Of a stretch of 38,926 bases of DNA, positions 19,581 to 34,102 are shown in pieces. Each line of letters opens with the position of its first letter. Position 1 is the stretch's first letter. This DNA is from Aestuariibaculum sediminum (lineage in GTDB: Bacteria > Bacteroidota > Bacteroidia > Flavobacteriales > Flavobacteriaceae), in NCBI RefSeq assembly GCF_014596945.1, contig NZ_JACVXB010000012.1, positions 1 through 38,926 of the forward strand, read 5' to 3'. A model generated the notes under the pieces. It worked only from the letters and a program-made list of their open reading frames with translations, was not told the origin of the DNA and searched no databases. Made by a program: the position numbers and the translations under genes.

Positions 19581-19609
19581 AAAAAAACCGGCAGAACGCC
19601 GGTTTTTTT
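19581..19609. terminator. Bidirectional terminator
   Basis: AAAAAAACCGGC (19581-19592) and GCCGGTTTTTTT (19598-19609) form a 12-bp hairpin with a 5-nt loop between convergent genes. It serves the beta-helix gene on plus and the NAGPA-type gene on minus. Confidence 0.9.
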
Positions 19610-19626: not shown

Positions 19627-20466
19627 CTACCGTATCGTTACATAAAAAATTCCTTTTACAGAGCGCTCTTTTCCATCTGAAGGTGTATTAACGATTTCAT
19701 CGTCATCATAACCTTTTACAAATAAGGTACTGGAACCTCCCCCATCAAGATTTATTATATCGGTACATCCTATAAACTTTCCAAACATTAAAACTTCATT
19801 TAAAGTCATTCCTGCAGCTGTTTCTGAACGTCCATCTACAACCACCATAAGTAAATGGTTATTTGCAAAAGCCATAAACGATCTTGGATGCCGCTTCGTA
19901 TTAAAAGAAGCGTAGCTTAAATGCAATAGCCTTCCATCATCCATTAAAAGTGGACCAGAAACTAAAACATCATCAGCTTTATCATTATAACCTAATTCCT
20001 TGTCACTATTCCAGTTTGAAATATCTATGTAATTTTCTTTAACGGTAATAACACCAGTAGCTCTTGTTAAATATTCTGTTTTAACCGTATGTGCTTTAAC
20101 TTCTCCATCAATCATTATAAAATGCATACTTTCTCCAAGCGGCTCACTATGATTTCTGAAAAAAGAACCGTTAATAGCTGCAATTGCATTTTTTGCTTTG
20201 GCTTGGACTGATGTCCTTTCCATAACTTTAGCCATTCCAACATCGTATTTCACTTTTGCTAAAGTCGTATCTATATCAACAATACTAATTTCCTGAGGCG
20301 AATCGAAAAGATTTGCTGAGGCTTTTCTCACCTCAACTCCTTCAATGATCTTAGTTGTTCTCCAATTAATATCTTCAATATTCAAAGAGAACTCTTCAAC
20401 TTTTTGTTGAGACATACCTTTTATACTTATTGCTAGTAACCCCAGTATTAAAATTTGTTTCTTCAT
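19627..20466 (-). CDS. Phosphodiester glycosidase family protein (NAGPA/DUF2233)
   Basis: This 279-residue protein has a signal peptide (MKKQILILGLLAISIKGMSQ) and the NAGPA/DUF2233 core: AINGSFF (residues 101-107), DVLVSGPLLMDDGRLL, KRHPRSFMAF, VVVDGRSETAAGMTLNE and NLDGGGSSTLFV. In animals the NAGPA domain removes GlcNAc from mannose-6-phosphodiesters, and bacterial members cleave sugar-1-phosphodiester bonds such as those in teichoic acids or cyclic phosphodiester polymers. Here it is probably a periplasmic or secreted glycosidase at the end of the Sus operon, although a hairpin at 20502-20532 separates it from the gene upstream. Confidence 0.9.
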   Translation of the reverse strand: MKKQILILGLLAISIKGMSQQKVEEFSLNIEDINWRTTKIIEGVEVRKASANLFDSPQEISIVDIDTTLAKVKYDVGMAKVMERTSVQAKAKNAIAAINGSFFRNHSEPLGESMHFIMIDGEVKAHTVKTEYLTRATGVITVKENYIDISNWNSDKELGYNDKADDVLVSGPLLMDDGRLLHLSYASFNTKRHPRSFMAFANNHLLMVVVDGRSETAAGMTLNEVLMFGKFIGCTDIINLDGGGSSTLFVKGYDDDEIVNTPSDGKERSVKGIFYVTIR

Positions 20467-20501
20467 TCTTTTTTATTTTTTAATCTAAAAATTAATATTA
20501 A

Positions 20502-20532
20502 AAAAACACTACCCAAATTGAATAGTGTTTTT
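20502..20532 (-). terminator. Hairpin terminator within the Sus locus
   Basis: AAAAACACTA (20532-20523 on minus) pairs perfectly with TAGTGTTTTT (20511-20502), followed by a T-rich tail. Only 35 nt separate it from the NAGPA-type ATG, too little for a separate promoter. It therefore probably acts as a partial terminator or mRNA 3' stabiliser. Confidence 0.7.
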
Positions 20533-20553
20533 ATAATGTTTACTTTCTTTAAC

Positions 20554-21819
20554 TTAAAAACTATATGTGCTTAACGGAAGTCCAAATACAGCTCTTTGTC
20601 CCGGGTGCTCCATAAGCCCCCATAAATCGTGATAATACGGTGAATAATACAGTCCTTCTGTACCATGAGGAAAACGATAACGTTTCGTGTTTTGAGTTCC
20701 GTATTCCCATAAAAGTAATCTGGACGTAGAATCGTAATATTCAGACTTACCCGATACGGCAAAGTAAAATATTCCATCTTTAGCGAATAAGCCTTGCATG
20801 TGGTTTACATAGCCTCCATCGGTATCTATTGGATCTATTTTTCTAACGTTGGCCGATGTGTTAATTGTACCATCTGAATTTAAAGCAAATGAATGGACAT
20901 AAGCATGCCCTGATGTAGAACTTAAATTATAGTAATTTCCGATATTGATTCTCGGATCTCCATTGGTGTTATAACTTAAAGACATTGCCGACAATGGTTT
21001 ATGAGAGCTATCTACGGTGTAGCTCGCTATACGCGGTAATATATATTGATACCCAAAGGCATACATCTTACCATCGGCGCTACTATAACCTATTTTTCCA
21101 CCGCCGCCGCTTGCAGTAACTTCAATAATTTTATCTAAATCAAATTCATCTATAGTGCTACTACCTGTAACATATAATTTCCTATTATAATAAGCCAGTC
21201 CTCCAGCATGTACAAAATTAGGTGCATAACCATTGTACTGCGTATAAGATGTGTTATTAAAATTCTCGGAAGTCCCTGCAAAATTGCCACCAGACTTTCT
21301 AACTAATAAAATATTACGATAAACCACATTGTTCATATCTGTTATATCGCAAAGCGATAACCGTGATCCGTGTGCAGATTTAGAGTACCAAGATACAGCG
21401 ATAAATCGCCTGTTCCCCCATCTAAAACCTGTTATTCCTTGAGGGTACCAGGTTTCTGTATTTTGGTCGATAGCATCCCATGAAAACCCAGAATAATCAT
21501 AAATCACATTAAAACCATTAATGCCTACTAAATTATTTTCTAAAGTTGCTGATTTATTGAAGGTGATTCCTGTAGGTTGTAAATAAGTGGCACGGCGTGA
21601 TCCGATAAAAAAGTCATCTACTTTATCTTGATAGCTCACGCGAACATCTAATGCTGCTCCTGCGATTGAATACACTGAATTATTTTCTTGTAATGCTTCT
21701 GAATCATCTACAGAATCAGTAATTATTTCTTCCTTAGGTTCTGTTTCAATGGTTTCCTTAGAACAGCCAATAAACATAACTGAACAGATGATTAAAATAA
21801 AAATGGCTATTTTTTTCAT
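20554..21819 (-). CDS. Surface lipoprotein, beta-propeller-like, unknown
   Basis: This 421-residue protein has a lipobox (ICSVMFIGC, Cys19) and an acidic linker, then a large beta-rich domain rich in Tyr, Gly and Trp (GITGFRWGNRRFIAVSW, VHAGGLAYYNRKLYVTGS, GLYYSPYYHDLWGLMEHPGQRAVFG). Repeating strand-turn patterns suggest a propeller, with a final HGTEGLYYSPYYHDLWGL stretch like secreted phytase or lectin-like propellers. No catalytic motif is identified. An acidic stretch right after the cysteine is typical of surface-exported lipoproteins in this phylum. It sits mid-operon between the PHP-type enzyme and the NAGPA enzyme and may bind the substrate. Confidence 0.75.
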   Translation of the reverse strand: MKKIAIFILIICSVMFIGCSKETIETEPKEEIITDSVDDSEALQENNSVYSIAGAALDVRVSYQDKVDDFFIGSRRATYLQPTGITFNKSATLENNLVGINGFNVIYDYSGFSWDAIDQNTETWYPQGITGFRWGNRRFIAVSWYSKSAHGSRLSLCDITDMNNVVYRNILLVRKSGGNFAGTSENFNNTSYTQYNGYAPNFVHAGGLAYYNRKLYVTGSSTIDEFDLDKIIEVTASGGGGKIGYSSADGKMYAFGYQYILPRIASYTVDSSHKPLSAMSLSYNTNGDPRINIGNYYNLSSTSGHAYVHSFALNSDGTINTSANVRKIDPIDTDGGYVNHMQGLFAKDGIFYFAVSGKSEYYDSTSRLLLWEYGTQNTKRYRFPHGTEGLYYSPYYHDLWGLMEHPGQRAVFGLPLSTYSF

Positions 21820-21842
21820 ATTTAAAGATTTACTGGTGATTA

Positions 21843-23033
21843 CTACTCCTCTTCTTCACTTCCTCCTGCCATTGTTTTAGGGGTTAAGGCTTTTCTTAAT
21901 TTTACTTCTTGTTTCTCTTTATTAAAAACCATTTCTACCTCAATTGGTTCGCCTGTCAACTTTTTAAAATTCATCACCCTGTAAGTCACCTTAAATTCTC
22001 GCTTATCGATTCCCTTACTGTCCTTCACCTTAAACTCTAAGAGATTGGTTGTGTTTGGTAATAGTGTATTTTTTTTTGGCAAATCAACTACCTTATCTTC
22101 TCTCACTTTTTCTAATACAAAACGAATGTCAGTATGATTTTTTAATTGCGCATAACGTTTTTTACGGTACACCACATTCGCTGGGTCTAATAATTCTACA
22201 GACTGCGAAAACAAGGGTTTCAAAAACTTCTCCTCCCCTATAATAGTATCTGCAAAGTAAACAGCTGTGCGACGCTCGAACATGGCCTCTTTTATGCCCT
22301 TCTCAGTGTTTTCTTTAGCAAAAATTAAGGTTACAGGTCTATGTACTTCAAAATGACTTAAGTTAACCAGATAGTGTATATCGGAAGTAGAAGTAATAGT
22401 TAATTTATTTTCGATTGCCCAAGGAATAGCCTCTTCATGCAATTTTTTATTATTAAATATTTCAAGTCCATCTAAAAGCTTTTCGTCATAAGCCTGTTTA
22501 TGAAATTCCTGCCAATGTGGGTTCTTTCCTTGTCCTTCTAACGGATGATTTAACTGAATAAAGGCTCCTTGTTTTTTTGCTTCTCTGAAAGCTTCCAATA
22601 AATCTCCTTGAACTGGTTTTAGCAAATTAATATCTTCTAAAAAAAGAATATTAAAATGCCCAACCGGATCTTTGTAACGATTGATTTCTAATCCTTTTAT
22701 TAGAGTTATTCCAAGACGCTCTGCTATAACTTCAGCATCTCTATGTGGTAAGTTTTCATCTTCAAACTTAACCGCTTTTTGTAATACAGGTCCTTTATAA
22801 TTAATATGATCGGTTAAAGCAATAACATCTAAACCATCATGCCAGGCTTCCTGTACCCTTATGTCTGGCCACACACGTCCATCGGAATACACGGTATGAA
22901 TATGAAAATCCCCCTTCAAGGTTTTATACCCGGGAATATCTGGAATATTTATCTCATTTCGTATTTGTGCTGATACTGTTATACATAAAAGTAAAACAAA
23001 TTTCAGGCTATTCTTAAATATCTTTTTTTTCAC
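21843..23033 (-). CDS. PHP-domain phosphodiesterase (Sb-PDE type)
   Basis: This 396-residue protein has a signal peptide ending ITVSAQ and then a PHP domain: GDFHIHTVYSDGRVWP (metal-binding HxH), ALTDHINYKG, GLEINRY, HFNILFLE, QLNHPLEGQGKN, and STSDIHYLVN. The exported form and the C-terminal beta-domain (about 290-385) match the Sb-PDE family, in which the founding Sphingobium enzyme hydrolyses phosphodiesters using divalent metals. Here a periplasmic enzyme that splits phosphodiesters released by the neighbouring proteins is likely. It starts 15 nt after the GDPD gene. Confidence 0.85.
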   Translation of the reverse strand: MKKKIFKNSLKFVLLLCITVSAQIRNEINIPDIPGYKTLKGDFHIHTVYSDGRVWPDIRVQEAWHDGLDVIALTDHINYKGPVLQKAVKFEDENLPHRDAEVIAERLGITLIKGLEINRYKDPVGHFNILFLEDINLLKPVQGDLLEAFREAKKQGAFIQLNHPLEGQGKNPHWQEFHKQAYDEKLLDGLEIFNNKKLHEEAIPWAIENKLTITSTSDIHYLVNLSHFEVHRPVTLIFAKENTEKGIKEAMFERRTAVYFADTIIGEEKFLKPLFSQSVELLDPANVVYRKKRYAQLKNHTDIRFVLEKVREDKVVDLPKKNTLLPNTTNLLEFKVKDSKGIDKREFKVTYRVMNFKKLTGEPIEVEMVFNKEKQEVKLRKALTPKTMAGGSEEEE

Positions 23034-23048
23034 TATCTCTTTTATTAA

Positions 23049-23993
23049 TTAATTATGTTTACCTTTCTCTCTCAAGTAATTAAGTAATACCTGAGGTCTA
23101 TCGGTTTGTATTATATTTACATTGTTTTCAATATACCAATCGTAAACTGAGTTATCTAGCATGGCCTTTTCGTCGTCATGACCGCCATTTAAACTTGGCC
23201 ATAAAGCATTCATCCAAACAGAAGATCCTTGTGCTCTTATTTTTGAAAACCTTTCTTTTAATTCGAATGTGTCCAAAGGAGTGTTAATTTCAAAAGCAAT
23301 AGGTTTATTAAATTTTAAATACTTGTTAATCGTATCCTGAGCTCCCGAACGTTTAAGGTTAATAATAGGCATAAAATAAATATCGTTTAAGTGTTTTCCT
23401 AAATCACCTTCCACTTCTTCAAAGGTTTTTACTCCTTTAAAAATAACCTGATTTAAGGTTCCTGTTTCTTTTACAACTTCTAAACATTTGTAGAATATGT
23501 CATAACTCTTATCTAAGTTCACCAGAATTTTCCCTTTACATAATAACAAGGCGTCCTTAAGCGTTGGAACCGTTTGAGATGTTTTCCCTCCAATACCATT
23601 GGTAAGCACCAATTGCTGAATGCTATCTAAGGTAAAATCTTTAACCAATCCTTTGGCTTTAGTGGTGCGATTTACTGTTTTATCATGCATTAAAATAAGT
23701 TCGCCATCTTTAGTTTCCATAACATCAATTTCTACAATATCTACTCCCATATCAATACAATATTGTATAGCCTGTAATGAGTTTTCCGGGGAATTACGCC
23801 AATCGCCACGATGTGCCGCTACTAAAATATCATTGCCTTTGGCCTTTTCTAATTTTTCAATAAGTTGATTGATATCTTGACTATTCGAAGCTTTAAAAGC
23901 AACCTGCTGTATCGTGCTTTCTTCTTGCGCTTCTTGTTTACAACCAAAATAGCTAAGAACAATTAGCCCAAATAATAATTTAAAATATCTCAT
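23049..23993 (-). CDS. Glycerophosphodiester phosphodiesterase family lipoprotein
   Basis: This 314-residue protein has a lipobox (LIVLSYFGC, Cys18) and a GDPD barrel: LVAAHRGDWRNSPENSLQAI with catalytic His-Arg, VEIDVMETKDGELILMHD with metal-binding Glu and Asp and the second His, then NLDKS, FEINTPLD and WMNALWPSLNGG, ending with IIQTDRPQVLL. It hydrolyses glycerophosphodiesters (deacylated phospholipids, glycerol-phosphate polymers) to an alcohol and glycerol phosphate. It is lipid-anchored, so it acts in the periplasm or at the surface. Six bases separate it from the SGNH gene upstream; this is a tight operon. Confidence 0.92.
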   Translation of the reverse strand: MRYFKLLFGLIVLSYFGCKQEAQEESTIQQVAFKASNSQDINQLIEKLEKAKGNDILVAAHRGDWRNSPENSLQAIQYCIDMGVDIVEIDVMETKDGELILMHDKTVNRTTKAKGLVKDFTLDSIQQLVLTNGIGGKTSQTVPTLKDALLLCKGKILVNLDKSYDIFYKCLEVVKETGTLNQVIFKGVKTFEEVEGDLGKHLNDIYFMPIINLKRSGAQDTINKYLKFNKPIAFEINTPLDTFELKERFSKIRAQGSSVWMNALWPSLNGGHDDEKAMLDNSVYDWYIENNVNIIQTDRPQVLLNYLREKGKHN

Positions 23994-23999
23994 TTCTAA

Positions 24000-25091
24000 T
24001 TATTGGTTTATAATTGGAAGAATTTGAGGCGTAATGGCTTTTATCATTCTATCAAAACCTAAATCGTTAGGATGCGTTCCATCTACCGTACCTTCGTGAT
24101 CGTCTCCAAGAAAGTCATTCCCAAATATGAAATAAATATTTTTCATACCAGACTGATGCAATTTCATAAATTCATCATAGGCATTTTTATTTTGCATTTT
24201 CACCTTTTCTCCGGTTTTCTCATCAACAAACCCTATTTCTCTTACTACGCTTTGCATCAAGATAATTGGCGCATTTGGGTTTTTGGATCGGATAGTTTTT
24301 ATTAAGTTTCCTGTACGTTGGGTTATTTCTTTTGGGCTACTATTTGGAATGCAATCTAATAAATAGACATCGGCCTCAATATCGGCCACCATATTAGCGA
24401 CTTCTTTTTCCATTCTTGCAACACCTGACATGCCTAAATTTAAAAAATTAAACCCTGTATTTCTGGACATACGAGAAGTATATGCCATTCCTGGACGACT
24501 AGCTCCTGCTCCTTGAACAATACTAGAGCCATATACTAAAATACGTTTATTAAAAGGCTGATCGCCTGCTGTAATTTTCGCCGTGTTTTCCACACCAATT
24601 TCTAAACTAGTGGTTTCGCTATACACAGGTAAATACAATAAGTATTCACGTTGTTCTCCATTTAAATTCGCTACTAATTTACCCTCACTAGAGTTTTCGC
24701 CACTTTTAGGCCGTCCTACCCCCGCAAATTGCCACTTACCATTAATTTTAGTATACAAGTCTAATCCTCTAAAAGCAATAGGAGTCATTCCTGAACTTGG
24801 ATATTTACTTGTTGTACACCATTTTGCGTGAATTGATTTGCTATTGGTTTTAAATGAAATGGCTAAACCAGCCGAACGCGTTAAACGGGTTTTAATGTGT
24901 TCTGGAATATTAGAATACTTCGCTGTATCAATACGATGAAATGGTTTATCTGTATCCATAATTTTTCCAACCATTGTAAAATTAGATGATGGATAATATT
25001 TTATATCTGAAGATTTTTGAGCAAAACCATTTAAACCAAAAAATAAAACCCCAACAAATATGGTTAGAGTTACTTGTAATGTGTATTTCAT
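24000..25091 (-). CDS. SGNH/GDSL-type hydrolase, secreted
   Basis: This 363-residue protein has a signal peptide (MKYTLQVTLTIFVGVLFFGLNGFAQ). An N-terminal jelly-roll-like part (about 30-165) is followed by an SGNH hydrolase domain with block I RILVYGSSIVQGAGASRPG, a block with LNLGMSGVARM, and the catalytic DGTHPNDLG near the end. The catalytic serine lies in GSS and the Asp-His pair in DGTHP. It is an esterase or deacylase of ester groups on the substrate (acetyl, acyl or alanyl esters). I use the ATG at 25091; a TTG two codons upstream is not needed. A 9-bp hairpin (25128-25158) lies just before it. Confidence 0.9.
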   Translation of the reverse strand: MKYTLQVTLTIFVGVLFFGLNGFAQKSSDIKYYPSSNFTMVGKIMDTDKPFHRIDTAKYSNIPEHIKTRLTRSAGLAISFKTNSKSIHAKWCTTSKYPSSGMTPIAFRGLDLYTKINGKWQFAGVGRPKSGENSSEGKLVANLNGEQREYLLYLPVYSETTSLEIGVENTAKITAGDQPFNKRILVYGSSIVQGAGASRPGMAYTSRMSRNTGFNFLNLGMSGVARMEKEVANMVADIEADVYLLDCIPNSSPKEITQRTGNLIKTIRSKNPNAPIILMQSVVREIGFVDEKTGEKVKMQNKNAYDEFMKLHQSGMKNIYFIFGNDFLGDDHEGTVDGTHPNDLGFDRMIKAITPQILPIINQ

Positions 25092-25127
25092 AAACAATTA
25101 TATTATTATTTGAAGCATTTTTTTATC

Positions 25128-25158
25128 CAGCCCGCCACGATATATTGTTGACGAGCTG
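25128..25158. other. Intercistronic hairpin before the SGNH gene
   Basis: CAGCCCGCC (25128-25136) and GACGAGCTG (25150-25158) pair over nine positions with two G-U. There is no T-run downstream on the minus strand, so it is more likely an mRNA-stability or translation element than a terminator. It is in the only wide gap (85 nt) in the upstream half of the operon. Confidence 0.4.
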
Positions 25159-25176
25159 AAAATGAAAAAATCTACG

Positions 25177-26151
25177 TTAAGGAATTACAACAGTAATCGT
25201 TTTATATATTTTTTTATAATTTTCAATGTTAGCATTAGCTGCTAAAAAGGTCACTTCATATTCTCCTGAATCACTATATTCATGAACAAAAGACGTTAAT
25301 TTAGCATCACCAACGCCTTTTATAGGCAAAGAACTATCAGCACCTAAATCCATTTTCTTTTCAAATTTCTGGCTTATTACCCAAGCCTCGGTTTCGTCGG
25401 TTAACCAAGCAATTTCTTCTTCATTTATGGTAGTAAAACTCCCATGGTTACCTCTTAATGTAATAGTCGAACTAGAAATTACATTTCTACCAGATCTGTA
25501 GTTACCAATTTCAACCAAGCCCCAATCTAGATCAACCTCTGCCAGACCAAACAAATCTGTTTCGCTATACATACGCCACCCTTGTAATCTAATAGCGGCA
25601 TATATTCCATTTTCAAACTGATTTGGTGTTATGTATCTAAAAGCAAGATAAAATGAACCATAAGTATCCATTAAATCCTGTAGATCTACTTGTCCTGAAG
25701 AATCATAATTTGTATTATCAACAGTAAGCATACTAAAATCGAATCTATCGGTAATATCTATCCAAGTGGCTGCGTGAATATTCTCTTCATTGTAATTACC
25801 ATTAAAATCTGGTGAAGCTACTACCGAAAATTGCGACAAGGGGTCTTGCTCTCCATAACCACATCTGGAAGCAAAAGAAAAATCTACCGATTCTATACTT
25901 GCAACCTTCCCTTCTCTATATTTGAATTCAGCCCCCTCTTCACCTGAATAAAAAGAGATGATATCGGCTTCTTCATCAAAATTAAAAGTTACTTTTTTCA
26001 CGATACCATCACCGGTATCAACATCTTCAACTTTATAATTTTTTATCTTGAATTTTGGCTCATCAATTACATACTCATCTTCACAAGACAAGTTTATTGA
26101 AGCCACTAAACAAATGAACAGTATATTTAATAATTGTTTCATATTTATCAT
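25177..26151 (-). CDS. DUF5017 surface lipoprotein B
   Basis: This 324-residue protein has a lipobox (LVASINLSC, Cys near 23) followed by an acidic stretch and two beta-domains. The first has the DUF5017 signature VTFNFDEEADIISFYSGEEGAEFKYREG. The second includes WIDITDRFDFS, YLAFRYITPNQFENGIYAAIRLQGW. Such proteins lie next to SusD genes in Bacteroidota loci and probably act as additional surface glycan-binding proteins. It is a close paralogue of the next gene in the operon: same length and domain order, and both end in a strand built as KTITVVIP or AKIKVVIPEE. Another ATG three codons in is equally possible. Confidence 0.85.
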   Translation of the reverse strand: MINMKQLLNILFICLVASINLSCEDEYVIDEPKFKIKNYKVEDVDTGDGIVKKVTFNFDEEADIISFYSGEEGAEFKYREGKVASIESVDFSFASRCGYGEQDPLSQFSVVASPDFNGNYNEENIHAATWIDITDRFDFSMLTVDNTNYDSSGQVDLQDLMDTYGSFYLAFRYITPNQFENGIYAAIRLQGWRMYSETDLFGLAEVDLDWGLVEIGNYRSGRNVISSSTITLRGNHGSFTTINEEEIAWLTDETEAWVISQKFEKKMDLGADSSLPIKGVGDAKLTSFVHEYSDSGEYEVTFLAANANIENYKKIYKTITVVIP

Positions 26152-26172
26152 TTTTTCTTTATTAAGCAGATG

Positions 26173-27147
26173 TTATTCTTCAGGAATAACTACTTTAATT
26201 TTCGCTAACACAGGTTTTTCGGTATTGGTTTTATGAGCTACAAACACAGCCTCATATTCCCCTGGTTCATAGTAACGTTCAATAAATGATGTTACAGGGA
26301 TATCCCCAATAGCTTTAACAGCTACAAATTGATCTTTACCCAAATCTTCAGCACCAACTGGAAACGCCGCAGATATAAACCAAGCTTCGGTCTCCGCTGT
26401 TTTATAATCTGACCCTGCCGTTCCATGATTACCTCGGCACCAAAGGGTTACAGGATCGTTGGTATTAATGTAACTTCTTGTTCCGTTTTCTAATCCTGTT
26501 TTTACCACTTCCCAGCTTGGTTCATAATCTGTTTGACCTAATTCACTTTCGCTATTTACAGACCAGTCTCTTATTTTAATGGTTGTATAAATACCGTTTT
26601 CATCTTGATTTAAGGTCTTGTATTTAAAAGCCAAATACACCGACTGATACGATTTTATAAATTCGCTTAAATTAGCAACGCCTGAAGCGTGAAATTCTTC
26701 ATCACCATTAATAAATGGCGAAATATAAAACTGCTCGGTAATATCTGTCCACGTTGAAATTTTCACACTGTTATAATCATAACTTCCATTAAAATCAGTA
26801 GACATTAATACCGACAATTGGTTTCTTGGGTCTTGACCTCCTCCGAAACCACAATTGGTTGCAAAAGAAAAATTCAGGGCATCAAGTTCAACAATTCTGC
26901 CGTCTTTATAATTATAATCGTATCCAAACTCGCCTGAGTATAGCGCTATATAATCGGCATCTTCTTGAATATTGAATTTAACTTTCCAAAAAGGATCTCC
27001 ATTTGAATCTGTAAATTTTTCAAGAGTATAATCGGTAATTTCGATTTCGGGAAAAACACCTACTGTTTCACTATCAGATTCGCACCCAAAAAACAAAGCT
27101 GAAAATAATACCAGCGTTAATAATTTTGACATTGTTTTCTTCATCAT
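26173..27147 (-). CDS. DUF5017 surface lipoprotein A
   Basis: This 324-residue protein has a lipobox (LFSALFFGC, Cys near 22). The domain layout matches its neighbour, with VKFNIQEDADYIALYSGEFGYDYNYKDGR, WTDITEQFYISPF and YLAFKYKTLNQDENGIYTTIKIRDW. The pair clearly arose by tandem duplication, and they have diverged mostly in loops, as expected for proteins binding two parts of one ligand or two related ligands. It begins 13 nt after the SusD stop, so it belongs with SusC/SusD. No enzyme motif is present. Confidence 0.85.
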   Translation of the reverse strand: MMKKTMSKLLTLVLFSALFFGCESDSETVGVFPEIEITDYTLEKFTDSNGDPFWKVKFNIQEDADYIALYSGEFGYDYNYKDGRIVELDALNFSFATNCGFGGGQDPRNQLSVLMSTDFNGSYDYNSVKISTWTDITEQFYISPFINGDEEFHASGVANLSEFIKSYQSVYLAFKYKTLNQDENGIYTTIKIRDWSVNSESELGQTDYEPSWEVVKTGLENGTRSYINTNDPVTLWCRGNHGTAGSDYKTAETEAWFISAAFPVGAEDLGKDQFVAVKAIGDIPVTSFIERYYEPGEYEAVFVAHKTNTEKPVLAKIKVVIPEE

Positions 27148-27160
27148 TTTAATATTTTAT

Positions 27161-28759
27161 TTACCAGCCTTCGTTTTGAACTAATAAACTATTTAACATT
27201 AATTCTTTTGTTGGGATAGGCCAAAGCATGTGTTTTGGTGCTACATTTTTTAAATTCACAATTAACGTCTTTGTTGCCGCTGACACTGTTGTGCTGTATT
27301 CATACGTTGAAACCATCGCTTCAATACTTTCTACATAATCATTCCATCGGATAAGGTCGCCGCGTCTTAAACACTCAAAACATAATTCTCTGGCTCTCTC
27401 TTCTTTTAGAAATAAGAAAAATTCGGTTTGATCTACTGGTAAATTAGCACCTTCAAGTAGTGGAGCTTGTGCTCTTGCTCGCACTCTATTCACTGCATTA
27501 ATCGCTTCCTCTGTTGGCCCATTTAAATAATTTTCAGCTTCTGCAAACATTAAAAGCACATCGGAATATCTCAACATAGGAAAGTTAATTGGCGTGAATG
27601 AAGTTTTAGGTAATACCAACTCATATTCTCTTCTATATTTTCCGGCGTAACGTCCCCAAATTTGAGTTTCGTTATCGGTTCTATATTCCTTCGAGCCATC
27701 ATCATTATAATCAAATGGTGCTATTGCCCAATCTCTCCTCAAATCTCCATCTTCATACATAAAAAACAAAGTTGCTGTCGCTCTGATATTTCCGTTCGCA
27801 TTTCCAATTCCTGAAGCTGCCGAACTGCGAATACCATTATAATTCCCTACCGTGCCAGCCTGACGCGGATGATCTGTTCTGTTGCCAAAAAACTCCACTT
27901 CCCAAATGCTTTCACTAACATCGTAAGTATCTTGAGCATAATTAATAAATACCTGTTCGTAAGACGGGTTTAAAGCATGCTGTGTACCTACTAAAGAAGG
28001 ATTCATAACTGTAGCCGCCCATTTTTTAGCTTCAATATAACGGCTAACTTCATTATTTGGATAGCCTGCCCAATGTAGGTTTACGCGAGCCAAAATACCA
28101 GCAACTGCTGATTTGTTTATACGACCACCATACCCTAATTTTGAGGCTGTTTGAACCAAATCGAATGCTTTCTCCATATCTTCAATTATTTGTTGATAAA
28201 TAATAGACGATTTTGATTGCGGCACCAATTCTCTGGCTTCTTCGGCTGTTCTTGTTGCCTTTAATACAAGTGGCACATCACCAAAATGTGAAGTCAGCAT
28301 GAAATAAAAATAACTTCTTAAAAACAAGGCTTCACCTCTAAAAATATCTCTATTTACTTCGTTGTCCATCTCGGCATTATCTATACTCTCTAAAAGGTAA
28401 TTTGCATGATTTATGCCTTGATACAATCTATCCCACACATTAGAAAGCGATGGTGCTGATGGATTATAAAGAAATTGTGAAATAATATTACGTTGTGGCG
28501 TATGTCTGTAATACCCTAACTCGCCTTCAGTTCCCATTTGATGAATATAATCACCTCCGTATAACGGACTACTGTCTCGGGTATCAGAAAGTGTATTGTG
28601 CACCCCTATTAAGGCCGTAAACAGTTGTTCTTCCGTTTTATAATAATCTTCAGGTTCTAAAAAACTTTCTGGTTCGGTTTCTAAAAAATCTGAACAGGAT
28701 TGAAGTGTAAAGATTAAACCTGAATAAACTAAAAGTATTATTAAAATATGCTTTTTCAT
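27161..28759 (-). CDS. susD: SusD/RagB-family nutrient-binding outer membrane lipoprotein
   Basis: This 532-residue protein has a lipobox (LIFTLQSC, Cys near 22) followed by the usual SusD start SDFLETEPESFLEPEDYYKTEEQL. TPR-like helices (about 75-240) and the C-terminal SusD motifs follow: NFPMLRYSDVLLMFAEAEN, AINAVNRVRARA, ERARELCFECLRRGDLIRW, and the ending NSLLVQNEGW. It closes over the SusC barrel and captures the substrate at the surface. It lies 18 nt after susC, the regular arrangement. The ligand cannot be deduced from sequence; the enzymes downstream suggest a phosphodiester-linked molecule. Confidence 0.95.
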   Translation of the reverse strand: MKKHILIILLVYSGLIFTLQSCSDFLETEPESFLEPEDYYKTEEQLFTALIGVHNTLSDTRDSSPLYGGDYIHQMGTEGELGYYRHTPQRNIISQFLYNPSAPSLSNVWDRLYQGINHANYLLESIDNAEMDNEVNRDIFRGEALFLRSYFYFMLTSHFGDVPLVLKATRTAEEARELVPQSKSSIIYQQIIEDMEKAFDLVQTASKLGYGGRINKSAVAGILARVNLHWAGYPNNEVSRYIEAKKWAATVMNPSLVGTQHALNPSYEQVFINYAQDTYDVSESIWEVEFFGNRTDHPRQAGTVGNYNGIRSSAASGIGNANGNIRATATLFFMYEDGDLRRDWAIAPFDYNDDGSKEYRTDNETQIWGRYAGKYRREYELVLPKTSFTPINFPMLRYSDVLLMFAEAENYLNGPTEEAINAVNRVRARAQAPLLEGANLPVDQTEFFLFLKEERARELCFECLRRGDLIRWNDYVESIEAMVSTYEYSTTVSAATKTLIVNLKNVAPKHMLWPIPTKELMLNSLLVQNEGW

Positions 28760-28777
28760 TTCTATTTTTTTTAATAA

Positions 28778-31700
28778 TTAAAATGCCAAATCAAGTCCGA
28801 ATACAATTCTTCTGGCATGCGGGTAAGCCGAAAAATCGAACCCTGGTGTTAAAACTGAGTTGTGAACTGAAACCTCTGGATCCATTCCCGAATATTTCGT
28901 CCATGTGATTAAATTCTGGGCAGACAAACTCACATTTAAGCTGTTTACGCCTAGTTTAGACGTGAAACTTTCGGGTAAATTATAACCTAACGATAAGGTT
29001 TTAAGACGTATATACGAGCCATCTTCAATGGTGCGAGACGAAACAACTTCTGGTCCTTCACCATTCACACGATACATTTCATTGGTTTGATTTTCCGGGG
29101 TCCAACGGTTAGCATAAGAAGCAAACTGATTTAATCGACGCACTCTTGTTGGGTTTCCTTCAAAAATAATGCGGTTCGCATTCATTAAATCGCCTCCATA
29201 CGACCACTGAAACAGGACATTAAGAGACAACCCTTTATAATTAAACACATTTGAAAAACCTCCGATGTGTTTCGGAATTGGGTTACCAATTACGGCTTTA
29301 TCGAAAGCATCAATAACACCATCCTCATTTAAATCTTTATATTTAATATCTCCTGGTTGAATAACACTACGATCATCGCCATTGGTTGCTACATTACTTT
29401 TTAAAACATATGTATCACCAACTTGATCAAAATCTTCATATTGATAATTTCCATCCCAGATTAACCCGTAAAACATAGCCGCAGGTCCACCTACTTCTGC
29501 AATGTACATCGGCTCTTCAGCCATACGGTTTGAAAACGAATTGATGTATGAGAAACGACTCAACTCACCATCTGAAAGCGATAAAATCTTGTTTTTATTA
29601 AAAGAGATATTGAAATTAGTAAGCCATGAAAAACTTGGTGTTTGCACATTCACCGTATTTAAAGTTATCTCTAAACCTCTGTTTTCTATACTTCCTATGT
29701 TTGTATAAACACTAGTAAAACCACTTGATCCGGGAATTTGGGTTCTTAAAAGCATATCGTCGGTGGTTTTTAAATACACATCAGTTTCTAAACTGATCCT
29801 GTCCTTAAATAACCCAAGATCTAATCCTAAATCCAACTGCTTTACAGTTTCCCATTTTAACTTATCGTTCCCCAAAGACAACTCCACCCCTGTATATGTT
29901 TGGTTGTTGAAGGAATACGAATTAAGATCACTAAAATTCAAAGACGATCGGTAAGCAAAATCGCTTACACGGTTATTTCCTGTAGCTCCGTAACTGGCTC
30001 TAAGTTTTGCATTAGAAATAAAATTAACAGCCTCCATAAACTTTTCCTTATTCAAACGCCAGGCAAAAGCTCCAGAAGGAAAGTATCCCCATTTATTTAC
30101 TGTGGGAAATTTTGAAGAGCCATCGGCTCTCATCGTTAAGGTAAAATAATATTTAGAAGCTAATCTATAGTTTAACCTCCCCATAAATGAGGCTAACGTA
30201 TTGCCACTAGCATCAGAGGTTGATGTTTGTAAATCACCTTCAGAGAGACCGTTAACACCTAATTCTTCATTAGGTAAATTTATGGCGGTAAAACCATAAG
30301 TATTCGACTTACTTCCACTCGCAGCAAACCCTCCAACAGCATTAAAATAATGGTTTTCACCTACATATTTTTTCCAGGTGATGGTGTTTTCGTTTACCCA
30401 GTTTATCTGTTCTGAATGAGAAACCGAACCGTTTATTCCATTGGTATTATTTAAACGAATTGGTGTACCTCTATGTGTTTTACTATTGTAAAACTGATCA
30501 TTTCTACCTGATCTATTAAAGTAACTACCCGTAATTTTTAATTCCAGATTTTTATTAATATCATACCTATAATAACCATTCGCAGTAAGTGTATTGATTG
30601 TATTTTCTCTTAATACATTTTCAGCGTTAATTACCGGGTTTATGGTAAAAATCCCTGAGTCTTCATAAGCGTCTTCATCTACTAACTCGTTTTCTAAATC
30701 GAAATCATAACTCCCGTTATCAATCCCTGTAACAGGCCTGTATCCCCAAACAGAGTATAACAAATACCCATTAATAGCCGTGTTGGTTGACGAAGCGGTT
30801 CGGCCAACAATTTGTCCGTAAGCCTTTTGATTTGTAAAGTTAATGTTGGCACCTAACTCCCCTTTTTTTCCAAGTTTTTGATCCAATTTCAACCTTGCCT
30901 GAGCACGTTCAAATCCTGTATTTACAACAATCGCCTCATTATTTGTATACGATCCGGAGATAGAATATTTGGTATCCTCAGATCCACCTCTTACCGCAAC
31001 GGAATGTATGGTTGTTGAACCTGTGTTAAATAAATTATCCTGCCAGTCAATACCTGGTACACGCTTGTAGTAATCTAAATCACGGTTATCTGATAAGTAA
31101 GTGCTTCGCAATGTTGGATCCCTTTCAATCTCGTAGGCAATAAATTCATACGGACTCATCATATCCATTGTTTTATAGACATTATCAAACCCCACAGAGG
31201 CTCTATAACTTACTACCGGCTTTCCTACCAGTCCTTGTTTTGTTTCAATAACAATAACCCCGTTAGCTCCTCTTGCTCCATAAATAGCTGTTTGCGAAGC
31301 ATCCTTTAAAACTGTAATAGATTCAATTTCATCTGGATTTAAAGCTGAACTTATAGGGTCTTCCATAGGCACACCATCTATAACATAAAGCGGTTGTGTA
31401 CTTTGAGTTAGTGAGCCAGCCCCACGAATAACAATATTCATTTCTGAACCTGGTTGACCATCCTCCATTGAAGATACCTGAACCCCAGCTACACGACCTG
31501 CCAATGCCTGATCGAAAGAAATTACGGGTGCCTTTGCAAGATCTTCCATATCTACGGTACCAACAGAACCTGTTACATCGCGTTTATTAACCGTACCATA
31601 CCCAACTACAAGCACCTCATCTAATTCGGTATTCTCCGAATCTAAAGTAATATTTAAAGTGTTTTCAGATCCTACTTCTATGGTTTTAGGAGCATAACCT

Positions 31701-32218
31701 AGATAAGACAAGGCTAACTTAGTACCTTCCGGGACCTCAATAGAATAAACCCCATCAAAATCGGTTAAAGCTCCGACATTAGAATCTTTTATATAAACCG
31801 ATACGCCAACTAAAACCTCTCCTGTTTCAGCATCGGTTACTATTCCTGATACTTTTTTCTTTTGAGCAGATTTTAACGATACATTCGTACCATCAATTTT
31901 ATACTTTAATTCTGTTTTAAGTGAAATTTGATCGAGAATAAATTCTATTGATTTGTTATTGAACTGAAATGAATATAATTTTACATCATTTGCAATATCA
32001 TCAGTATACCTAAAATTGTAGGTAGAAATATTTTCTAATTTAGAGAAAATAGCTTTTAAGGAAGTCTGGTTAAAATCGACTGTATATTTTCCTTTTGGTT
32101 TTGTCTGTCCTTGTACATTAATCTCACTTAAAACATTAAGGAGCAAACACAGCATTATTAATCTTGTAACAAAAGTCTTTTTATCTTTTGTTACATTACT
32201 TAATTGATATAATTTCAT
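28778..32218 (-). CDS. susC: SusC/RagA TonB-dependent transporter with STN signalling domain
   Basis: This 1146-residue protein has an unusual-length N-terminus with signal peptide (MCLLLNVLSEINVQG), an STN domain (about 45-115, TVDFNQTSLKAIFSKLENIS) and a carboxypeptidase-regulatory-like domain (121-198, VSGIVTDAETGEVLVGVSVYI). The plug has the TonB-box region VLVVGYGTVNKRDVTGSVGT, and a beta barrel ends in RRIVFGLDLAF. The STN domain is the mark of transducers that signal substrate capture to an anti-sigma factor. The fecR and sigma genes lie directly upstream, giving a complete trans-envelope signalling unit. A hairpin at 32260-32292 lies between fecR and susC. Confidence 0.96.
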   Translation of the reverse strand: MKLYQLSNVTKDKKTFVTRLIMLCLLLNVLSEINVQGQTKPKGKYTVDFNQTSLKAIFSKLENISTYNFRYTDDIANDVKLYSFQFNNKSIEFILDQISLKTELKYKIDGTNVSLKSAQKKKVSGIVTDAETGEVLVGVSVYIKDSNVGALTDFDGVYSIEVPEGTKLALSYLGYAPKTIEVGSENTLNITLDSENTELDEVLVVGYGTVNKRDVTGSVGTVDMEDLAKAPVISFDQALAGRVAGVQVSSMEDGQPGSEMNIVIRGAGSLTQSTQPLYVIDGVPMEDPISSALNPDEIESITVLKDASQTAIYGARGANGVIVIETKQGLVGKPVVSYRASVGFDNVYKTMDMMSPYEFIAYEIERDPTLRSTYLSDNRDLDYYKRVPGIDWQDNLFNTGSTTIHSVAVRGGSEDTKYSISGSYTNNEAIVVNTGFERAQARLKLDQKLGKKGELGANINFTNQKAYGQIVGRTASSTNTAINGYLLYSVWGYRPVTGIDNGSYDFDLENELVDEDAYEDSGIFTINPVINAENVLRENTINTLTANGYYRYDINKNLELKITGSYFNRSGRNDQFYNSKTHRGTPIRLNNTNGINGSVSHSEQINWVNENTITWKKYVGENHYFNAVGGFAASGSKSNTYGFTAINLPNEELGVNGLSEGDLQTSTSDASGNTLASFMGRLNYRLASKYYFTLTMRADGSSKFPTVNKWGYFPSGAFAWRLNKEKFMEAVNFISNAKLRASYGATGNNRVSDFAYRSSLNFSDLNSYSFNNQTYTGVELSLGNDKLKWETVKQLDLGLDLGLFKDRISLETDVYLKTTDDMLLRTQIPGSSGFTSVYTNIGSIENRGLEITLNTVNVQTPSFSWLTNFNISFNKNKILSLSDGELSRFSYINSFSNRMAEEPMYIAEVGGPAAMFYGLIWDGNYQYEDFDQVGDTYVLKSNVATNGDDRSVIQPGDIKYKDLNEDGVIDAFDKAVIGNPIPKHIGGFSNVFNYKGLSLNVLFQWSYGGDLMNANRIIFEGNPTRVRRLNQFASYANRWTPENQTNEMYRVNGEGPEVVSSRTIEDGSYIRLKTLSLGYNLPESFTSKLGVNSLNVSLSAQNLITWTKYSGMDPEVSVHNSVLTPGFDFSAYPHARRIVFGLDLAF

Positions 32219-32259
32219 ACTTTTACGTAAATTCTTTTAAGAAGTTTTTTAATTTCTTT

Positions 32260-32292
32260 AAAACCGGGATTGCGCCAACAACTTCCGGTTTT
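32260..32292. terminator. Hairpin between fecR and susC
   Basis: AAAACCGG (32260-32267) pairs with CCGGTTTT (32285-32292), with A/T runs on both sides. It could end the fecR transcript, so susC would need its own promoter downstream of 32260 or read-through. Confidence 0.6.
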
Positions 32293-32342
32293 TTTTATGT
32301 TGTTATAAGCTTTTAAACTACGGTCATGATTGGTGGTATTAT

Positions 32343-33284
32343 TTATTCGGTTATTATTATATTATTTCCTTGAATTTTATAATCTATATCGAACATGAAC
32401 TTAAGATCATCCAAAACGTATTTAATAGATTTGTTTTGATATTTACCATTAAGCGTTCTGCCATTTAAATTGTTGGACTTATTATTTATAGTAACGCCGT
32501 ACCATTGCTCTAAAAGTGTTAAGACTTCAGGGAGTTCTCTGTTATTAAAACTAATTATGTTTCGACTCCAATCGCTTAATGCTTCAGAATTTACCTGAGA
32601 TACCAGAGAAGTATTCGTTGTTAAATCAAGTAAATATTGTTTGTCTTTAACTAAGATGGCGGCCTCCGTTTTATAGTTTGCCTGATCTACGCGTACACAA
32701 CCGGTAGAAACGGTTACAGAAACATTTAAAGTATCTTCTTTAATATTAAAACTTGTACCTAAAACTGTTGTATTTAGATCTTTAGTTTTAACTATAAAAG
32801 GTTTGCTTTTATCATGAGAAACATTAAAAAATCCTTCACCCTTTAATTCAACTTCACGATTATTATTGGGAAAATTTTCAGGATACTTACAGTAACTATT
32901 AGCATTTAAAACCAAAGTTGAATGATCTGGAAGTGTAATGGTTTTACGTTCGCCTTGCTGTGTATATACTTCAACAAAACTTTTAACTTGTTGCTCTGTA
33001 TTTAAAGTGGTGTTGTAAAAAAATGTATACCCAACAGTTAGACATAAAAGAATAACAGCGGCATATTTCATAAAATTTTGACCAGCTTGAAGGCGTTTTC
33101 TGAATTTAATATTAGCTAAGGTATTTTTAAGAACCTGTTCTTTATTAGGTGTAACATGCTTACTTATATTTTCAGAGTCTTTTAATTTCTTAGATACAAG
33201 CCTATCTAAAAACACCTGCTCTTCTTGTGTTGCTTTACCTTCGGCAGACCTTTTTAATAATTTTCTAATTTCCTTTTCTTCCAT
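32343..33284 (-). CDS. FecR-family anti-sigma factor
   Basis: This 313-residue protein has a cytoplasmic helical N-terminus (1-85, EEKEIRKLLKRSAEGKATQEEQ), one transmembrane helix (about 90-108, FMKYAAVILLCLTVGYTFFY), the periplasmic FecR domain (RKTITLPDHSTLVLNANSYCKYPENF ... VELKGEGFFNVSHDKSKPFIVKT) and the C-terminal DUF4974 domain (ISFNNRELPEVLTLLEQWYGV). It holds the sigma factor inactive and relays the signal from the STN domain of SusC. It lies between the sigma gene (195-nt gap) and susC on the same strand. Confidence 0.95.
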   Translation of the reverse strand: MEEKEIRKLLKRSAEGKATQEEQVFLDRLVSKKLKDSENISKHVTPNKEQVLKNTLANIKFRKRLQAGQNFMKYAAVILLCLTVGYTFFYNTTLNTEQQVKSFVEVYTQQGERKTITLPDHSTLVLNANSYCKYPENFPNNNREVELKGEGFFNVSHDKSKPFIVKTKDLNTTVLGTSFNIKEDTLNVSVTVSTGCVRVDQANYKTEAAILVKDKQYLLDLTTNTSLVSQVNSEALSDWSRNIISFNNRELPEVLTLLEQWYGVTINNKSNNLNGRTLNGKYQNKSIKYVLDDLKFMFDIDYKIQGNNIIITE

Positions 33285-33333
33285 TTACAGTTATGTTTTA
33301 TACAGTTTAATGAAAAAGTGTTTGAAGAAAATA

Positions 33334-33366
33334 AAACGTACTATAAGAAAAGTAGAACTTTACTAT
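33334..33366. repeat. Short direct repeat upstream of fecR
   Basis: TACTATAAG occurs twice about 23 nt apart in the 195-nt gap between the sigma gene and fecR (GTACTATAAGAAAAG and TTACTATAAGTTAAC). On the minus strand these read CTTATAGTA. Such paired sites in front of a FecR gene may be the sigma-factor promoter or an operator; this is a guess. Confidence 0.3.
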
Positions 33367-33479
33367 AAGTTAACATTAAAGCGCTTTTTATTAAATTGAA
33401 TAACATTTAAATAACACTTCACTTATCTTTAACAAACAAAAGTGAGGTTGCTTATAAACGCATTTATGATGTAGATGGT

Positions 33480-34073
33480 CTAAAAAAGATTTTTAACTAA
33501 AGCTAAAACATTAGAAGTAATGACAACATTTTTAACAAGCTCAACATTGTAGTTTTGAGCTTTTAAATGTTCTTTTAAAACCTTTAAAGCTATTGAAAGT
33601 TGATTTTTAACGGTTTGTTTGGAAATATTTAATTTCTGTGCAATTTCATCATGAGAAAGTTCCTCATACCGACTAAGTTCAAAAACTCTTCTGCAAGCTG
33701 GCGATAATAAGGCAACTCCTTTATCAATTACATTTTGTAAATCATCAACTTCTAAAAGATTGTAAACTTCTTCAGAACTTACAATTTCGTAAAAAGCTTC
33801 AGATATATCTGATATATCCCTTTTCTTAGACCAATAGTTATACACTTTGTATTTAACCATCTGATAAAGATAAGCTCTTAAGTTTTCTATATCTCGTTGA
33901 CCTAAAGAATTCCAGATATCAATCAAAACATTTTGCAATAAATCTTCAGTTTCCTCCTTGTTATCTGTTAAGCGAAAACAAAATTCATAAAGTTCGTCGA
34001 AATAATTATCAAAAAGCAATCGCATCCCTCTCTCATTACCTTCTCTAATTAACTTTATAATACTGGAGTCCAT
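33480..34073 (-). CDS. ECF-type sigma factor (FecI-like)
   Basis: This 197-residue protein (chosen start MDSSIIKLIREGNERG) has region 2 (LFDNYFDELYEFCFRLTDNKEETEDLLQNVLIDIW ... LRAYLYQMVKYKVYNYWSKKR) and region 4 (LLSPACRRVFELSRYEELSHDEIAQKLNISKQTVKNQLSIAL). After region 4 it carries a 22-residue tail ending in a hydrophobic helix (NVVITSNVLALVKNLF), which is unusual. An ATG five codons earlier (34088) is possible, but the promoter-like TAGTTTTG at 34110-34103 would leave only about an 8-nt leader for it. It pairs with the FecR and STN-SusC genes downstream and presumably drives them. Confidence 0.93.
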   Translation of the reverse strand: MDSSIIKLIREGNERGMRLLFDNYFDELYEFCFRLTDNKEETEDLLQNVLIDIWNSLGQRDIENLRAYLYQMVKYKVYNYWSKKRDISDISEAFYEIVSSEEVYNLLEVDDLQNVIDKGVALLSPACRRVFELSRYEELSHDEIAQKLNISKQTVKNQLSIALKVLKEHLKAQNYNVELVKNVVITSNVLALVKNLF

Positions 34074-34102
34074 CTGAAAAATTTGCATTATTCTTAGAAT
34101 AG

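What the first reader, a model, noticed from the sequence alone, without database searches (positions are those of the whole stretch)
19627..34073. A Sus locus equipped with three phosphodiester-cleaving enzyme families and no glycoside hydrolase
The operon-like run ECF sigma, FecR, STN-SusC, SusD, two DUF5017 lipoproteins, SGNH esterase, GDPD, PHP (Sb-PDE) phosphodiesterase, surface lipoprotein and NAGPA-type phosphodiester glycosidase contains no recognisable GH, lyase or sulfatase. All three hydrolases other than the SGNH enzyme act on phosphodiesters or sugar-phosphodiesters in their known families. The likely substrate is a polymer or head group with phosphodiester links, such as teichoic acid-type glycerol- or ribitol-phosphate chains, phosphoglycans or glycerophospho-headgroups. 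The DNA shows the gene set; the substrate is inference.
Basis: partly seen in the sequence, partly recalled or inferred. Interest (0 to 1): 0.78.

Follow-up and report, generated by a model that had tools for sequence, protein, structure and literature searches.

The report
Uptake operon with phosphodiester-cutting enzymes
A bacterial genome carries an uptake operon of the kind normally used to eat sugars, but its enzymes look made to cut phosphate-linked molecules; relatives carry related mixes, so it is probably one of a little-studied group of organophosphate-feeding systems rather than a one-off.

Summary
The gene run is real: eleven same-strand genes (19627-34088) encode ECF sigma, FecR, SusC, SusD, two DUF5017 lipoproteins, SGNH esterase, GDPD-DUF4996, PHP-DUF5001, an uncharacterised lipoprotein (LIPO) and NAGPA. 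None matches a glycoside-hydrolase, lyase or sulfatase family; catalytic motifs are intact. GH20 and GH16 genes lie just outside, beyond an integrase. Conservation is partial and modular. The nearest orthologous locus (G337, 71-77% for the shared SusC-to-LIPO proteins) keeps ECF-FecR-SusCD-DUF5017-SGNH-PHP-LIPO but lacks GDPD and NAGPA. G227 has SusCD-TIM-SGNH-PHP-NAGPA with FecR and ECF. LIPO relatives in G407 and G368 sit in SusCD loci with two calcineurin-type phosphoesterases and a GDPD. The GDPD subfamily is strongly SusCD-linked (12 of 13 family loci against 5 of 46 control PHP loci), five of 13 with a GlpT-like transporter. But the window's SusC belongs to a DUF5017 lineage found elsewhere with a PL8 lyase and sulfatases, and NAGPA also occurs beside glycoside hydrolases. 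Best reading: a substrate-sensing organophosphate-diester utilisation locus, a new enzyme combination close to published "PUS" loci (PMC8115612). Teichoic acid is possible but unsupported. New variant of a known kind.

The parts
33480..34088 (-). ECF sigma factor
   Evidence: Pfam Sigma70_r2 and r4_2; 47% to G337
32343..33284 (-). FecR-type anti-sigma regulator
   Evidence: Pfam FecR, FecR_C
28778..32218 (-). SusC transporter with N-terminal STN/FecR_C-like signalling domain
   Evidence: Pfam, TIGR04056 906 bits, tree
27161..28759 (-). SusD lipoprotein
   Evidence: Pfam SusD_RagB, SusD-like_3
26173..27147 (-). DUF5017 lipoprotein, extra copy (37% to the single G337 copy)
25177..26151 (-). DUF5017 lipoprotein, orthologue of the G337 copy (74%)
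24000..25097 (-). SGNH/GDSL esterase with GxDLY N-terminal domain, probably exported
   Evidence: Pfam, PDB 4lhs, GSS and DGTH motifs; signal peptide by eye
23049..23993 (-). GDPD-DUF4996 glycerophosphodiester phosphodiesterase, lipoprotein; absent from the G337 locus
   Evidence: Pfam, PDB 3i10, HRG/EID/MHD motifs; lipobox by eye
21843..23033 (-). PHP-DUF5001 metallohydrolase, probably exported
   Evidence: Pfam, PDB 3e38, invariant His/Asp/Glu; signal peptide by eye
20554..21819 (-). uncharacterised lipoprotein LIPO, all-beta, perhaps a propeller
   Evidence: no family; homologues in 3 other of 299 genomes; weak model
20502..20532 (-). terminator-like hairpin between LIPO and NAGPA
   Evidence: a hairpin seen by eye after LIPO in G337
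19627..20466 (-). NAGPA phosphodiester glycosidase family protein; absent from the G337 locus
   Evidence: Pfam, PDB 3ohg, invariant HPR, DGR, DGGGS
19581..19609 (.). bidirectional terminator-like hairpin ending the run
34494..35717 (-). tyrosine integrase upstream of the ECF gene (neighbour; membership uncertain)

Best explanation
The run is a substrate-sensing SusCD uptake locus for a phosphodiester-containing molecule, working like a phosphate-utilisation-system (PUS) locus. Shown by sequence: SusC/SusD pair, ECF sigma, FecR, SusC with a signalling-type N-terminal domain, lipoproteins, and four hydrolases with intact motifs. Inferred: SusD and the DUF5017/LIPO lipoproteins capture a soluble acylated glycerophospho- or sugar-phospho-compound at the surface; SusC imports it and signals to FecR, freeing the ECF factor; SGNH removes an ester group, GDPD releases sn-glycerol-3-phosphate, NAGPA splits a sugar-1-phosphodiester and PHP cuts a remaining phospho- or carboxyl-ester bond, in the periplasm or at the surface. 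Inferred history: the window differs from the G337 operon by GDPD, NAGPA and a second DUF5017; gain in the window lineage looks likelier at least for NAGPA, which lies after a terminator-like hairpin.
For: Gene content and intact motifs. GDPD-DUF4996 has SusC nearby in 12 of 13 family loci (all hits at E<=1e-55, own excluded; the miss is a 6.9-kb contig) against 5 of 46 control PHP loci, and in 3 of 4 class-sample loci; a GlpT/UhpT/PgtP-like MFS lies in 5 of the 13 and in L164 and L005 (but also near 2 of 46 control PHPs). G227 has SusC-SusD-TIM-SGNH-PHP-NAGPA with FecR and ECF divergent beside it, and its NAGPA is the best non-own hit of 299 genomes. The 3 other LIPO carriers of 299 genomes all have it in ECF-FecR-SusCD loci: G337 with PHP, G407 and G368 (one near-identical locus) with two calcineurin-type phosphoesterases and a GDPD. 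Published low-Pi-induced PusCD loci carry phosphodiesterases and ECF or FecR genes (PMC8115612).
Against: The orthologous G337 locus lacks GDPD and NAGPA, and G337 has no NAGPA hit at all. The window SusC is outside the 10-row GDPD SusC clade and inside a DUF5017 clade whose member L171 has a PL8 lyase and two sulfatases. NAGPA also sits in a SusCD locus with GH20 and GH109-type proteins (L218). No phosphomonoesterase in the run and no clear GlpT in the genome. PHP is nearest CehA/McbA hydrolases, and 46 of 49 family PHPs lie outside such runs. GH20 and GH16 stand 2-4 kb upstream.
Confidence: 0.56

Rival explanations
1. An ordinary carbohydrate PUL whose glycoside hydrolases lie elsewhere (perhaps the GH16/GH20 pair upstream). 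PHP, NAGPA and SGNH act on ester or side-chain bonds of an anionic glycan, and the GDPD is an accessory.
For: SusC falls among DUF5017 SusC proteins, one beside a PL8 lyase and sulfatases; GH20 and GH16 just upstream; NAGPA with GH20 and a GH109-type protein in L218; PHP near CehA/McbA; GDPD and NAGPA absent from the G337 locus.
Against: No GH or PL in the run; G337 has no GH in the stretch fetched by its own orthologous locus as far as labelled (not all its neighbours were scanned); GDPD-DUF4996 and LIPO keep company with phosphoesterases; an integrase separates GH16/GH20 from the ECF gene.
Confidence: 0.24
2. A dedicated system for a glycerol- or sugar-phosphate polymer: teichoic acid, capsule or phosphoglycan. 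GDPD trims glycerol-phosphate, NAGPA cuts sugar-1-phosphodiester linkages, SGNH removes acyl or D-alanyl esters.
For: Bond types match the enzyme families (established family knowledge, recalled); SusCD suits oligomers.
Against: No endo-acting depolymerase recognised; nothing in the neighbourhood points to ribitol, ManNAc or D-Ala metabolism among scanned genes; GlpT-bearing sister loci fit small glycerophosphodiesters equally well.
Confidence: 0.12
3. A chimaeric locus without one coherent substrate: GDPD and NAGPA were inserted by chance and serve separate, general scavenging.
For: Unique full combination in the genomes searched; G337 lacks both genes; NAGPA lies behind a hairpin; integrase nearby.
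Against: GDPD is 6 and 15 bp from its neighbours in the operon; SGNH-PHP-NAGPA recurs in G227 and LIPO with a GDPD in G407/G368.
Confidence: 0.08

Closest known systems
Phosphate utilisation systems (PUS, PusCD) of Flavobacterium, Lidbury et al. 2020, PMC8115612 (abstract, passages and section 19 seen)
   Same: SusCD pair without CAZymes, phosphodiesterases beside it, ECF sigma or FecR genes in several clusters (Fjoh_4171, Fjoh_3252, Fjoh_3858/3859), polyphyletic SusD forms
   Different: Enzymes in the passages seen are PhoA, PhoA with pf13653, a PI-PLC-C1 (pf16670) and a calcineurin-type (pf00149) PDE; the window has GDPD-DUF4996, PHP-DUF5001, NAGPA and SGNH and no phosphomonoesterase; low-Pi induction of the window is unknown
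ECF-FecR-SusCD-GDPD(-GlpT-like) loci found here (L206-L208, L211-L215, L217, L221, L222, L262)
   Same: Regulators, SusC (SusD recognised in 11 of 13), GDPD-DUF4996
   Different: Most of their SusC proteins form a clade (10 rows incl. L165, SH-aLRT 100) that excludes the window's; the window lacks GlpT and adds SGNH, PHP, LIPO, NAGPA
Phocaeicola vulgatus ATCC 8482 locus L047
   Same: SusC, SusD, two NAGPA and PHP side by side
   Different: PHP divergent from the SusCD-NAGPA run; no GDPD, SGNH, DUF5017 or LIPO recognised
Classical polysaccharide utilisation loci
   Same: SusCD architecture, surface lipoproteins, ECF/FecR regulation
   Different: No GH, PL or sulfatase in the run

Membership tests
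Classical PUL | adjacent susC and susD | tested here: met
Classical PUL | at least one glycoside hydrolase or polysaccharide lyase in the locus | tested here: not met
   GH16/GH20 only beyond the integrase; LIPO unclassified
PUS / PusCD locus | SusCD with phosphodiesterase or phosphomonoesterase genes and no CAZymes | tested here: met
   by family assignment only
PUS / PusCD locus | ECF sigma or FecR gene in the cluster (seen in several PUS) | tested here: met
PUS / PusCD locus | induction by phosphate depletion | not testable with these tools
   needs transcriptomics or proteomics
PUS / PusCD locus | SusD in a Pi-responsive PusD clade | not tested
   the F. johnsoniae PusD sequences were not compared
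SusCD-GDPD(-GlpT-like) locus class of this report | SusC inside the GDPD-linked SusC clade | tested here: not met
   (quick tree, SH-aLRT only, SusC of fetched loci only)
SusCD-GDPD(-GlpT-like) locus class of this report | GlpT-like transporter in the locus (5 of 13 members) or the genome | tested here: not met
   (own best 27.5 bits, partial)
NAGPA phosphodiester glycosidase | PF09992 with family-conserved residues | tested here: met
NAGPA phosphodiester glycosidase | cleavage of a sugar-1-phosphodiester | not testable with these tools
   assay needed
Sb-PDE-type PHP phosphodiesterase | closest kinship to Sb-PDE among PHP enzymes | not tested
   only Pfam PHP/DUF5001, PDB 3e38, NCBIfam CehA/McbA below cut-off
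GDPD | PF03009 with HRG, ExD and HD motifs | tested here: met

The most novel reading that the evidence does not exclude
The locus imports and dismantles a glycerol-phosphate or sugar-phosphate polymer such as teichoic acid or an acylated phosphoglycan: a SusCD system for phosphodiester-backbone polymers, put together by adding a glycerophosphodiester module (GDPD) and a sugar-phosphodiester module (NAGPA) to an SGNH-PHP-LIPO operon.
Probability: 0.12. Interest if true: 0.8.

Novelty: new variant of a known kind. Interest (0 to 1): 0.5.

Why it matters
SusCD systems are usually read as sugar importers. This locus and its relatives add to the evidence that a share of them feed on phosphodiester compounds. 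The survey points to a testable class, ECF-FecR-SusCD-GDPD loci, some with a GlpT-like transporter and many with a SusC lineage of their own; the listings of my ten literature searches showed no description of it. If confirmed, annotation of CAZyme-free SusCD loci would change and the organic-phosphorus diet of these bacteria could be predicted from gene content.

Tried and rejected
(1) That all three enzyme families travel with this SusCD pair: rejected, the G337 locus has only PHP. (2) That the window's SusC belongs with GDPD-linked SusC proteins: rejected by the tree. (3) That PHP itself marks such loci: rejected, only 3 of 49 family PHP loci are of this kind, and of 80 PHP loci from genome contigs only 4 hold NAGPA (L047, L074) or GDPD (L005, L056) (an earlier, narrower count gave three). 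(4) DUF5017 as a marker of phosphodiester loci: rejected, it also follows SusD beside a PL8 lyase and sulfatases. (5) LIPO as a known fold or enzyme: inconclusive; model mean pLDDT 58.6 from four sequences, Foldseek hits are assorted propellers and include GH43 and GH62 entries. (6) Repeats flanking the integrase: only a 38-nt direct pair at 71%, not pursued.

Limits: gene calls in fetched loci are mechanical ORFs labelled with home-made iterated HMMs. The class survey covers 198 genomes, the family survey 299, own included. The GDPD count uses hits at E<=1e-55 (13 loci in 11 genomes, all fetched); weaker hits were not counted, and the one weaker locus fetched (L263) was left out. Six of 46 control stretches are shorter than 14 kb. 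Of the 10 non-own genomes with NAGPA hits, loci of 5 were fetched (G227, G203, G291, G316, G434). SGNH was not searched genome-wide. The tree is a quick one without bootstrap and holds only SusC proteins of fetched loci. Signal peptides and lipoboxes were judged by eye.
Full report
OBSERVATION. Gaps from SusC through LIPO are 6-79 bp; FecR-SusC is 124, ECF-FecR 195 and LIPO-NAGPA 87 bp. A bidirectional terminator-like hairpin ends the run at 19581-19609, and a minus-strand one lies between LIPO and NAGPA (in that stretch 22 such sites were found against 8.6 expected, so single sites are weak evidence). None of the eleven proteins matches a GH, PL or sulfatase Pfam family. Upstream, beyond a tyrosine integrase (34494-35717), lie GH20 and GH16 genes on the same strand, so 'no glycoside hydrolase' holds for the interval but not for its neighbourhood. 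The window is a whole contig, so nothing further out can be read.

ENZYMES LOOK FUNCTIONAL. GDPD matches PDB 3i10 at E=1e-70 and keeps HRG, EID and MHD. PHP matches 3e38 at E=4.8e-68; H44, H46, H76, E116, H163, D218 and H220 are invariant in a three-way alignment; that such residues are metal ligands is recalled family knowledge. SGNH matches 4lhs at E=3e-116 and keeps GSS and DGTH. NAGPA matches 3ohg at E=3.7e-9, and HPR, DGR and DGGGS are invariant in an alignment of nine sequences, the others 22-33% identical to it. NCBIfam places PHP nearest CehA/McbA metallohydrolases, at 71.9 bits against a cut-off of 80, so phosphodiesterase chemistry of PHP is an assumption.

RARITY. In 198 genomes of the class (own included) DUF5001 occurs in 3, DUF4996 in 5, DUF5017 in 13 and NAGPA in 44. 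By the coordinates in those calls only the own genome has all four, and in no other genome do matches to two of the four lie on one contig within 200 kb. (Neighbouring genes below those models' reach exist: L167 has a PHP beside GDPD-DUF4996, L156 another GDPD beside NAGPA.) None of four congeners has a SusD above 36% identity to the window's, so the locus was probably acquired horizontally or lost in them (inference).

PARTIAL ORTHOLOGUE. In 299 genomes of the family (own included) PHP occurs in 49 (E<=1e-15), LIPO in 4 (E<=1e-5), GDPD in 32 (E<=1e-20) and NAGPA in 11 (E<=1e-5). G337, of another genus, has an orthologous run: ECF 47%, FecR 44%, SusC 72%, SusD 77%, one DUF5017 74%, SGNH 75% (cut by the stretch), PHP 71%, LIPO 74%. 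It has no GDPD between SGNH and PHP and no NAGPA after LIPO, nor any NAGPA hit in the genome; a hairpin seen by eye follows its LIPO. Its best GDPD (54%) lies in a separate ECF-FecR-SusCD-GDPD-GDPD locus about 320 kb away. This is the clearest evidence against a fixed three-enzyme set.

MODULES IN OTHER SUSCD LOCI. G227 (L205) has SusC, SusD, an AP_endonuc_2 TIM-barrel protein, SGNH (36%), PHP (35%) and NAGPA (37%), with ECF and part of FecR divergent beside them; this NAGPA is the best non-own hit of the survey. G407 and G368 have ECF-FecR-SusC-SusD-lipoprotein (BACON)-LIPO-two calcineurin-type phosphoesterases-GDPD (the Pfam scans were done on the G407 copy). P. vulgatus L047 has SusCD, two NAGPA and PHP; Maribellus L005 has SusCD, GDPD, a GlpT-like MFS and PHP. 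L167 (G175) has PHP, two alkaline-phosphatase proteins (one with GDPD_2), PI-PLC-C1, GDPD and two SusCD pairs, much like published PUS content. Against the reading, NAGPA in L218 shares a SusCD locus with a GH20 and a GH109-type protein.

GDPD-DUF4996 IS MOSTLY A SUSCD ENZYME HERE. Of 13 family loci with hits at E<=1e-55 (own excluded), 12 have SusC, 11 SusD, 12 FecR and 10 ECF within 9 kb; the locus without SusC is a 6.9-kb contig. Among 46 PHP loci of the same 299 genomes outside the three related runs, 5 have SusC, 2 SusD, 0 FecR and 1 ECF (Fisher p=6.5e-8 for SusC). In the class sample SusC is beside it in 3 of 4 loci, L166 being the miss. A GlpT/UhpT/PgtP-like MFS lies in 5 of the 13 (L207, L208, L213, L215, L220) and in L164 and L005, but also near 2 of the 46 control PHPs (L248, L250). 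The two MFS proteins scanned (L005, L164) hit those families below all curated cut-offs. This suggests import of glycerol-3-phosphate set free from glycerophosphodiesters (inference). The window genome has no clear GlpT.

TRANSPORTER LINEAGE. In a quick SusC tree of 44 rows from the fetched loci the window and G337 fall in a clade of seven SusC proteins, all with DUF5017 beside them (SH-aLRT 99). One, L171 in the same genome, sits with a PL8-type lyase and two sulfatases, and L172 near sulfatases. Ten GDPD-linked SusC proteins form a separate clade (100). Phosphodiesterases have thus joined several SusC lineages, as PMC8115612 reports for PusD (section 19). The window's transporter may come from an anionic-glycan lineage (inference).

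MOBILITY. The integrase directly upstream of the window's ECF has counterparts: integrase-like proteins beside the G407 locus (L209) and, at the very cut-off of one Pfam model, the G368 locus (L210), and a full integrase near L207. G407 and G368, of different genera, share one collinear 14.1-kb block at 88.7% nucleotide identity running from ECF to GDPD, with different flanking genes.

MECHANISM AND KNOWN KINDS. The best-supported reading is a substrate-sensing organophosphate-diester utilisation locus (0.56). PUS loci of F. johnsoniae (PMC8115612; abstract, passages, section 19) share SusCD, phosphodiesterases, absence of CAZymes and, in several, ECF/FecR genes, but differ in enzyme families. 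Low-Pi induction, their defining trait, cannot be tested here. The window lacks a phosphomonoesterase. An ordinary anionic-glycan PUL remains a serious rival (0.24). Teichoic acid fits the bond types, but nothing in the data selects it (0.12). The ten literature searches, seen as listings, showed no description of this combination; most subscription-journal papers are not held.

Noticed in passing
L209:4952-19020 and L210:1277-15350: A 14.1-kb ECF-FecR-SusCD-lipoproteins-two phosphoesterases-GDPD block is 88.7% identical in two genera with different flanking genes and integrase-like genes beside it: apparent horizontal transfer of a whole phosphoesterase SusCD operon.
   Followed up: partly
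window:34494-35717: Tyrosine integrase (Arm-DNA-bind_5, SAM_5) between the GH16/GH20 pair and the ECF gene; a 38-nt direct repeat pair at 71% lies on its two sides.
   Followed up: partly
window:36099-38660: GH20 and GH16 genes in tandem at the contig edge, possibly the end of another glycan locus.
   Followed up: no
L207, L208, L213, L215, L220, L164, L005: GDPD loci with a GlpT/UhpT/PgtP-like transporter; L207 also has a HAD hydrolase and a 581-aa NAGPA protein. They look like glycerophosphodiester uptake systems.
   Followed up: partly
L171:5102-19697 (own genome, contig 14): SusCD-DUF5017 locus with a PL8-type lyase and two sulfatases, perhaps for a glycosaminoglycan.
   Followed up: no
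window:5889-15400: Trk potassium-uptake genes, ApbE, response regulator, histidine kinase and a protein with HYDIN/ASPM-type Ig domains.
   Followed up: no
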